From assembly GCF_001704155.1 (NCBI RefSeq), contig NZ_CP016294.1, forward strand, positions 229,001 to 293,000: a DNA stretch of 64,000 bases, written 5' to 3'. Under the pieces are notes generated by a model that was not told where the DNA came from, searched no databases, and was given only the letters and a program-made list of their open reading frames with translations. The DNA is from Stenotrophomonas rhizophila. GTDB taxonomy: Bacteria; Pseudomonadota; Gammaproteobacteria; Xanthomonadales; Xanthomonadaceae. This document shows, in pieces, positions 28,676 through 30,090 of this stretch. Every line of letters begins with the position of its first letter. The stretch's first letter is position 1. Position numbers and translations under genes: made by a program.

Positions 28676-29284
28676 ATGCCCATGTCGACGATGGCCTCGG
28701 TTGCCTTCGATGTGCTCACCAATGTGCTGGCTGCCGCGGTGCTGGGCACGGCGGCGATGCTGCGTGCGCGCGTACCGGATGTGTCCGGGGTGTGGACGCT
28801 GACCCGTTACGGCCAGGGACCTGAGCGCCACGCCGAGGCCGTGTACCTGGTCATGCTGTCCCAGAACGGGGTGCGCGTGGAAGGCGTGGCCGAGTGCGTG
28901 CAGTGCCGCGTTGGAAACGGACCGTTACGGTTGCTGCCCGGCCGCGAACGGCCACGGGTGGAGGTCAGTGGTGGGCTGTACGGCAGCGTGTTCCATCGCA
29001 AGCGCTTCCGCCTGCTGTTCCGCGAAAGCGCACGCCGCCAGGGCAGCATCGCCACCCACGGGATGGATCGCCGTGAAAGCGATGACCACTGGCGCGGCAG
29101 CTACATCCTCAGTGCCGGCGGCCGCAGTGGCGACAGTGAGTGGCGACGGGGGCAGGGCGCGCATGATTTCGCCGTGGCCAGCGATGCATACCCTCCCCGT
29201 GATCAGGGCAAAGCGCGTGCGCGCAGTGTGGCCGCCTGCGCCCAGCGTGCGGCCACGCGCGGGGCGGTGATGCACACCGCCTGA
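28676..29284 (+). CDS. Hypothetical protein with N-terminal membrane segment
   Basis: A 202-aa product of unknown function. Residues 7-28 are hydrophobic (VAFDVLTNVLAAAVLGTAAML) and could be a signal anchor. The middle is a beta-rich stretch with GVWTLTRYG, AECVQC and LYGSVFHRKRFRLLF; the C-terminal third is Arg/Ala-rich. No family was recognised. Its last 27 codons overlap the 3' end of the convergent methylglyoxal-synthase-like gene, which is unusual in length; the true 3' end could be affected. ATG at 28676 or 28682 are both possible. Confidence 0.6.
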   Translation: MPMSTMASVAFDVLTNVLAAAVLGTAAMLRARVPDVSGVWTLTRYGQGPERHAEAVYLVMLSQNGVRVEGVAECVQCRVGNGPLRLLPGRERPRVEVSGGLYGSVFHRKRFRLLFRESARRQGSIATHGMDRRESDDHWRGSYILSAGGRSGDSEWRRGQGAHDFAVASDAYPPRDQGKARARSVAACAQRAATRGAVMHTA

Positions 29285-30090
29285 TCGGTCACGGTGGTGA
29301 CTGCGCGCTCCAGCAGCTGGATGTCGGCTTCGTGCTGGCGCGCCACGTGCGGGTCTTCGAAGAAGATCGCGCGCTGGCAGCGGCCTTCCAGCACCTGGTC
29401 GGCGATCTGCGCGTCGCCGCCCATCGGGCCGCTCTGGTAGCGGGTCACCCACTCCTGGTCCCTGGCCCAGCCCCGGCTCCAGGCCAATTCATTCAGGCGC
29501 TGGCCGGTGGTACCGGTGCCCACGCGGCTGCGGAAGCGCGAGAGCAGCGCGAAGTGCTCGTCGGCGAAGGCCAGCATGGCCGGCTTCATCGCGTCGTGCG
29601 CGATCAGCGCCAGCGTGTGCTGCTCGAATGCATGCAGGTCCTCGGCGCCGGGATCGGCGGCCAGGTCGGCGTGCACGCGTTCCACTTCGATCCAGTCGCG
29701 CGCGGTGGCCACGGTGGAGATGAAGGGCTTGCCGTGGATCACGCACTGGCGCTTGAGTGCGGTGGCTTCGGGGAACACCGAGGACGGGTCGACCGGGTCC
29801 ATCAGGTAGATCGCCCCATCCAGCGTCCGCTCGGGCGTGCCCATGCCCACCACCTCGGCGACCAGCTTCATCAGGCCGCCCTCGCGGCCGTTCGGGTAGC
29901 GGCGCAGGGTGGCGAAATCGGGCAGGAAGCCCAGCCGCTGGATGGCGTCGAAGGTGCGGCCGACCGCGTGCAGCTCCACGCCCAGCTCGCGCAATCCGCT
30001 GTCGCTGGCACGCAGCCAGCGGAACAGGGCGGCGTGCTTGTCGTGGTGGTGCAGCCGATTGGCGGCCAGGCCGATGCGCATGGGGATCAT
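29203..30090 (-). CDS. Two-domain methylglyoxal synthase-like protein
   Basis: A 295-aa protein, twice the usual 150 aa. Residues about 160-285 match methylglyoxal synthase: AHD (164-166), GTGTTG, SGPMGGD with catalytic Asp226, and FFEDP...H253..D256 at the spacing of E. coli D91/H98/D101. Residues 1-140 repeat the same fold in degenerate form: GREGGL stands where GPMGGD is expected (Leu73 for Asp), while YLMDP is kept. The C-domain should convert dihydroxyacetone phosphate to methylglyoxal; the N-domain may be regulatory. It overlaps the convergent gene by 82 bases. Confidence 0.82.
   Translation of the reverse strand: MIPMRIGLAANRLHHHDKHAALFRWLRASDSGLRELGVELHAVGRTFDAIQRLGFLPDFATLRRYPNGREGGLMKLVAEVVGMGTPERTLDGAIYLMDPVDPSSVFPEATALKRQCVIHGKPFISTVATARDWIEVERVHADLAADPGAEDLHAFEQHTLALIAHDAMKPAMLAFADEHFALLSRFRSRVGTGTTGQRLNELAWSRGWARDQEWVTRYQSGPMGGDAQIADQVLEGRCQRAIFFEDPHVARQHEADIQLLERAVTTVTDQAVCITAPRVAARWAQAATLRARALP

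What the first reader, a model, noticed from the sequence alone, without database searches (positions are those of the whole stretch)
29203..30090. Duplicated methylglyoxal synthase with a dead-looking N-terminal half
The protein is twice normal length. The C-half keeps the catalytic AHD, GPMGGD, D246, H253 and D256, while the N-half shows Leu for the catalytic Asp but retains YLMDP. Fusion of an active and an inactive copy suggests intramolecular regulation of a toxic-product enzyme.
Basis: partly seen in the sequence, partly recalled or inferred. Interest (0 to 1): 0.55.

Follow-up and report, generated by a model that had tools for sequence, protein, structure and literature searches.

The report
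Methylglyoxal synthase with built-in dead twin
Many soil and plant bacteria make the enzyme that produces the toxic metabolite methylglyoxal as a double-length protein, in which a working half is joined to a well-preserved non-catalytic half that probably controls or scaffolds it.

Summary
On the minus strand at 29203-30090 lies a 295-residue protein with two methylglyoxal synthase (MGS) domains in a row. The C-half keeps every MGS catalytic residue. The N-half is a true but distant MGS relative with Leu73 in place of the catalytic Asp, plus changes at the positions of His19, Asp20, Lys23 and His98. This is not an oddity of one genome. It is a conserved family of Xanthomonadales and Burkholderiales: all 80 best hits in named genomes have both halves, as do 58 of 58 carriers in the host's family. 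Ordinary single-domain MGS was not found beside it. In 98 non-redundant members the C-half catalytic residues are kept in 98 of 98 (one Asp in 97). The N-half never has Asp at the catalytic-base position (Leu 97, Ile 1). Yet the N-half is under the same purifying selection as the C-half (omega 0.18 and 0.19), and its altered active-site loops are among its most conserved parts. Best reading: an active MGS with a pseudo-enzyme domain kept as a ligand pocket and/or partner subunit. Regulation is inferred, not shown. Public annotation calls one such protein simply 'methylglyoxal synthase'; my paper searches found none on this form.

The parts
29203..30090 (-). Two-domain methylglyoxal synthase gene, 295 codons plus stop
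   Evidence: single copy in the genome
29674..30090 (-). N-half, residues 1-139: pseudo-MGS domain, no catalytic Asp
   Evidence: NF003559 E 1.2e-6; hhalign to single-domain MGS E 3.9e-9; model order E5-10 H21-36 E39-42 H44-52 E62-64 H72-81 E92-96 H107-118 H127-140
29872..29874 (-). Codon of Leu73, at the position of the catalytic base (Asp71 of the E. coli enzyme)
   Evidence: hhalign; Leu in 97, Ile in 1, Asp in 0 of 98 non-redundant members
29623..29673 (-). Linker, residues 140-156, variable in sequence
   Evidence: alignments A2 and A4
29206..29622 (-). C-half, residues 157-295: MGS domain with complete active site
   Evidence: NF003559; Z 17.4, 40% identity to Thermus sp. GH5 MGS 2x8w
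29593..29598 (-). Codons of His165-Asp166 (E. coli His19-Asp20)
   Evidence: 98 of 98 members
29413..29415 (-). Codon of Asp226 (E. coli Asp71, catalytic base)
   Evidence: 98 of 98 members
29353..29355 (-). Codon of Asp246 (E. coli Asp91)
   Evidence: 97 of 98 members
29323..29334 (-). Codons of His253 to Asp256 (E. coli His98 and Asp101)
   Evidence: 98 of 98 members for both

Best explanation
The gene encodes a methylglyoxal synthase whose C-half converts dihydroxyacetone phosphate to methylglyoxal, while the N-half is a non-catalytic MGS domain that is always fused to it. Shown: two MGS domains, complete C-half active site, disarmed N-half, equal purifying selection on both, data that fit one common origin of the form, no ordinary MGS seen beside it. 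Inferred: MGS activity of the C-half; a mixed oligomer in which each working site is paired with a dead one, in place of the usual six identical subunits; and a pocket in the N-half (Arg45, Thr46, Gly68, Arg69, perhaps Lys113/Arg114) that no longer does chemistry but binds an anionic ligand such as phosphate or a phosphorylated metabolite and so tunes the working half, as the MGS-like domain of carbamoyl phosphate synthetase does as an allosteric site.
For: NF003559 and fold matches of the C-half. Catalytic residues invariant in the C-half and absent from the N-half in 98 members. The 19 N-half positions that correspond to the MGS active site are more conserved than the other 116 (mean entropy 0.62 against 1.16 bits, Mann-Whitney p 0.009), although the letters are not the catalytic ones. 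Median dN/dS 0.180 (N) and 0.186 (C) over 176 close pairs. The N-half was found only within the two-domain protein: 6 of 369 genomes of the class, all two-domain carriers. Tree: N-halves and C-halves each form one group. Glyoxalase I and II genes are present in the own genome, as expected for a methylglyoxal maker. No start-type codon lies at residues 140-167, which speaks against a separately made C-half.
Against: No assay, no ligand, no oligomer data. The conserved N-half loops are rich in glycine and proline and may be conserved for folding or packing alone. The conserved Leu73-Met74-Leu76-Val77 and Ala111-Leu112-Lys113-Arg114 stretches could equally be interface. One divergent member (L091, genome G999) has lost most N-half pocket motifs while keeping the C-half ones, so the pocket is not indispensable everywhere. 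The C-half differs from ordinary MGS (EDPHVARQHEAD motif, longer loop before SGP, last segment without the NxATA-type motif) and scores below the cut-off of the second MGS model, TIGR00160 (89.9 against 146.9 bits).
Confidence: 0.5

Rival explanations
1. The N-half is purely structural: a dead subunit that fixes the geometry of a pseudo-hexamer or shields the C-half, with no ligand of its own.
For: The most conserved N-half stretches include helix residues 107-116 (Pro107, Ala111 and Arg114 without variation), which are not all active-site positions; member L091 keeps ALKRxC but loses the pocket loops.
Against: Positions homologous to the active site are on average more conserved than the remainder, which pure scaffolding does not predict.
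Confidence: 0.3
2. The C-half is not a methylglyoxal synthase but a related phosphate-eliminating enzyme with another substrate.
For: Clade-specific motif FFEDPHVARQHEAD and longer loop before SGP; below the TIGR00160 cut-off.
Against: Every residue with a named catalytic or phosphate-binding role in MGS (H19, K23, T45-G49, S65-P67, D71, H98; PMC7843640, passages read) is present (the Gly49 position is Gly in 93% of the 43 rows of A4); over the NF003559 equivalog cut-off.
Confidence: 0.1
3. The N-half has gained a catalytic role of its own (bifunctional enzyme).
For: Conserved polar residues in the altered pocket: Arg45, Thr46, Arg69, Asp98, Glu108.
Against: No general base at the Asp71 position; H19, D20, K23 and H98 positions all changed; N-half never found alone.
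Confidence: 0.07
4. The N-half is a decaying relic without function.
For: Very long branch in the tree.
Against: dN/dS equal to that of the active half; 31 N-half columns invariant in the 43 rows of A4.
Confidence: 0.03

Closest known systems
Single-domain methylglyoxal synthase, EC 4.2.3.3 (MgsA; NF003559, TIGR00160; 1b93, 2x8w, 6f2c)
   Same: C-half: fold (Z 17.4 to 2x8w), all catalytic residues, NF003559 over cut-off. N-half: same family by profile.
   Different: Twice the length; N-half lacks the catalytic residues; C-half has its own EDPHVARQHEAD motif and altered last segment; below TIGR00160 cut-off.
MGS-like allosteric domain of carbamoyl phosphate synthetase (1a9x, 1ce8 with IMP; human CPS1)
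   Same: A non-catalytic MGS-fold domain covalently joined to an enzyme; the model matches this fold (Z 12.2).
   Different: There the partner enzyme is unrelated to the domain; here it is an MGS itself. The N-half profile finds MGS chains in the PDB, not CPS.
Tandem universal stress proteins (UspE, 3olq, 5cb0)
   Same: Overall layout of two like domains in one chain (Z 8.4 over 220 residues at 5.0 A), a level at which the tool warns of merely common arrangements.
   Different: About 10% identity; no family relation shown.

Membership tests
Methylglyoxal synthase (C-half) | Catalytic base Asp71 and acid/base partners His19, Asp20, Asp91, His98, Asp101 | tested here: met
   98 of 98 members, Asp91 position 97 of 98
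Methylglyoxal synthase (C-half) | Phosphate pocket Lys23, Thr45-Gly49, Ser65-Gly66-Pro67 | tested here: met
   Lys23, Thr45, Thr47, Thr48, Ser65 and Pro67 positions 98 of 98; Gly46 and Gly66 positions invariant, Gly49 position Gly in 93%, of the 43 rows of A4
Methylglyoxal synthase (C-half) | Score over curated family cut-offs | tested here: inconclusive
   NF003559 112 of 84 bits: over; TIGR00160 89.9 of 146.9: under; Pfam MGS 20.1 of 24.1: under
Methylglyoxal synthase (C-half) | MGS fold | tested here: met
   Z 17.4, rmsd 2.1 A over 123 residues, 40% identity to 2x8w
[quoted passage not shown] homohexamer | not testable with these tools
   no assay
Methylglyoxal synthase (N-half as an active enzyme) | Catalytic Asp71 and His19/Asp20 | tested here: not met
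   Asp71 position: Leu 97, Ile 1 of 98; His19 position His in 1 of 98; Asp20 position never Asp
MGS-like fold (N-half) | Homology to MGS | tested here: met
   hhalign 96%, E 3.9e-9; NF003559 E 1.2e-6; N-half profile against the PDB: 7 of 9 matched sequences up to E 10 are MGS, best E 0.0014
Allosteric MGS-like domain (as in CPS) | Binds a regulatory ligand | not testable with these tools
   only indirect: pocket-loop conservation

The most novel reading that the evidence does not exclude
A methylglyoxal synthase that carries its own sensor: a disarmed copy of the MGS fold, fused once in an ancestor, has become a dedicated pocket for a phosphorylated metabolite and replaces the homo-oligomeric phosphate control of ordinary MGS in Xanthomonadales and Burkholderiales. 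The enzyme would be a pseudo-hexamer with alternating working and sensing sites.
Probability: 0.4. Interest if true: 0.6.

Novelty: new variant of a known kind. Interest (0 to 1): 0.4.

Why it matters
Methylglyoxal is toxic and its synthase must be held in check. A fixed fusion of working and disarmed domains, conserved across two large bacterial orders and named only 'methylglyoxal synthase' where I saw it annotated, is a natural test case of how a pseudo-enzyme domain can govern its own active relative. It also warns that the kinetics of E. coli MgsA should not be carried over to these organisms.

Tried and rejected
Operon or partner gene: neighbours were compared in 20 relatives and the window. 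Glutamate synthase genes gltD and gltB lie near in 8 and 7 of the 21 regions (own included), but not as a constant unit; no methylglyoxal gene stands out. The first gene calling by longest ORF was misled by high G+C and was replaced.

N-half alone: its structure was predicted without an alignment and came out poor (pLDDT 39.6). The lack of a separate N-half match to MGS in the rows of the full model is therefore no evidence.

CPS-like or PurH-like origin of the N-half: the N-half profile finds MGS chains (7 of 9 distinct sequences up to E 10, best E 0.0014), two other hits at E 0.55 and 1.3, and no CPS or PurH.

Separately started C-half: no start-type codon at residues 140-167; the nearest are GTG 127, 136, 139 and ATG 168, after the first strand of the C-half. 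A start of the C-half alone is thus unlikely, not excluded.

Papers: searches gave no paper on a two-domain MGS by title or abstract start in the listings. PMC7843640 was read in passages. PMC4655335 was seen only as an abstract start in a listing. The Bacillus subtilis MgsA-Crh paper is not held. The library is open-access only, so absence is weak.

Rows dropped: L066 and L067 were taken out before the counts, because they are single-domain enzymes with an accidental upstream frame. They were still, which I use only for the lack of variation at Pro107 and Ala111. Rows at 95% identity or more were collapsed (127 to 98).

Full report
What is there. The window's minus strand at 29203-30090 encodes a 295-residue protein, the only MGS of its genome: the protein search finds one place, and the family search finds the two halves of this gene plus one chance-level place at E 0.18. 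The NCBIfam equivalog model NF003559 matches at 112 bits against a cut-off of 84. The C-terminal 150 residues alone match at 87.6 bits and the N-terminal 145 residues alone at 28.3 bits, E 1.2e-6. In the PDB, all 11 distinct sequences matched are MGS, with the best stretch always in the C-half. A full-length AlphaFold2 model from 43 aligned members has mean pLDDT 92.1 and pTM 0.91; both halves show the same run of strands and helices. Structural comparison of the model puts the C-half on MGS (2x8w, Z 17.4, rmsd 2.1 A over 123 residues). The N-half's own fold match was not obtained, because a model of it alone without an alignment was poor. Its homology rests on sequence profiles: N-half family against single-domain MGS, probability 96%, E 3.9e-9; the C-half in the same test gives E 5.5e-31; N against C gives only E 0.035.

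Active sites. The roles of H19, K23, T45-G49, S65-P67, D71 and H98 were taken from PMC7843640 (passages). In 98 non-redundant two-domain proteins the C-half positions for H19, D20, K23, T45, T47, T48, S65, P67, D71, H98 and D101 are kept in 98 of 98, and D91 in 97 of 98. In the N-half the D71 position is Leu in 97 and Ile in 1. The H19 position is Asn in 93, the D20 position Arg in 83, T47 is Arg in 94, P67 is Arg in 93, H98 is Ile, Val or Leu in 74, while T48 (97), D91 (94) and Pro92 (98) are kept. The N-half alignment right after its first strand has a gap choice: hhalign places a four-residue insertion there, while my position-by-position reading places Asn11-Arg12 on H19-D20. The D71 reading does not depend on it.

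Is the N-half maintained? Yes. Over 903 pairs of 43 members the mean identity is 0.658 (N, residues 4-138) and 0.686 (C, residues 157-284). Median dN/dS over the 176 close pairs that passed the filters is 0.180 and 0.186. The 19 N-half positions that correspond to the MGS active site have a mean entropy of 0.62 bits against 1.16 for the other 116 (p 0.009). In the C-half the same contrast is 0.08 against 1.07. So the pocket loops are conserved in an altered, non-catalytic form. This is what a retained binding site would give, but folding constraints could contribute.

Where it occurs. In the host's family 58 of 198 genomes have a match and every one of the 58 has the full two-domain form; G160 has two copies in an assembly with 6% contamination, and G170 has an additional C-terminal fragment. 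In the order 52 of 250 match: 51 two-domain, 1 single-domain. In a phylum draw 97 of 398 match: 11 two-domain, while 86 are matched by the C-half part only. No genome in these three draws showed both forms at the thresholds used. A class draw with the MGS model gave 21 of 369; the N-half profile in the same draw finds six genomes, all of them two-domain carriers among those 21, and no others (6 of 369). In all 80 the window protein aligns from one of its first five residues to residue 277 or beyond. An Acidovorax plasmid copy is annotated 'methylglyoxal synthase'.

Origin. In a tree of 20 N-halves, 20 C-halves and 25 single-domain enzymes, N-halves form one group (support 100/100) and C-halves one group (99/96), which fits one origin of the fusion. 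The N-halves sit on a very long branch, so whether they came from the C-half by duplication or from another MGS cannot be told.

Limits of the form. Two outliers are informative. L091 (genome G999) keeps the C-half motifs but has lost most N-half pocket motifs. L099/L050 (genome G397) has both halves, very diverged, plus a C-terminal extension of about 200 residues without a Pfam match. They show that the C-half is the constant part and that the N-half can drift in rare lineages.

How it most likely works. The C-half makes methylglyoxal from dihydroxyacetone phosphate; the N-half sits beside it as a dead twin. Ordinary MGS is a homohexamer (recalled), so a two-domain chain could form a pseudo-hexamer with three working and three dead sites. 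The dead site keeps a threonine and glycine loop and gains arginines, which would suit an anion. I infer a regulatory pocket, as in the MGS-like domain of carbamoyl phosphate synthetase, where 1ce8 has IMP as allosteric ligand (title). The own genome has glyoxalase I and II to remove the product. Regulation itself has not been tested, and a purely structural role is the main rival.

Verdict. The finding is larger than one gene: a widespread variant of MGS that shares its name with the ordinary enzyme. Interest 0.4.

Noticed in passing
window 28676-29284 (+): An open frame of 202 codons runs head-on into the MGS gene and overlaps its 3' end by 82 bases. It has no Pfam or NCBIfam match, and in the loci held outside this genome only the tail that overlaps or adjoins the MGS gene shows similarity, at weak E-values, as a shadow of that gene.
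   Followed up: partly
L091:5832-6704 (genome G999): A two-domain MGS whose N-half has lost most of its conserved motifs (no GRT, no GREGGL, no DPVDPSS) while the C-half active site is intact: possible relaxed constraint on the N-half in one lineage.
   Followed up: partly
L099:6605-8230 (genome G397): A 542-residue version with a further C-terminal stretch of about 200 residues without a Pfam match; MGS model score just under cut-off (83.5 of 84 bits).
   Followed up: partly
L044 and L045 (genomes G257, G280): Single-domain MGS relatives over the NF003559 cut-off that carry Glu in place of both Asp20 and Asp71 (AHE...GGE) and seem to lack His98: probably not ordinary methylglyoxal synthases despite the model.
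   Followed up: no
L171 (NZ_CACSJA010000013.1): A record named Pantoea sp. 18069 carries a two-domain MGS that looks like those of Comamonadaceae; the record may be misnamed or mixed.
   Followed up: no
genome G170, C1:544517-544732: Besides the intact gene there is an 83-residue open frame matching only residues 219-290 of the protein, a likely gene remnant.
   Followed up: no
L191:3947-4879: The two-domain MGS occurs on a plasmid of Acidovorax sp. DW039 (typed mobilizable), next to an IS30 family transposase gene; its N-half has His at the His19 position, unlike the other 97 members compared.
   Followed up: partly
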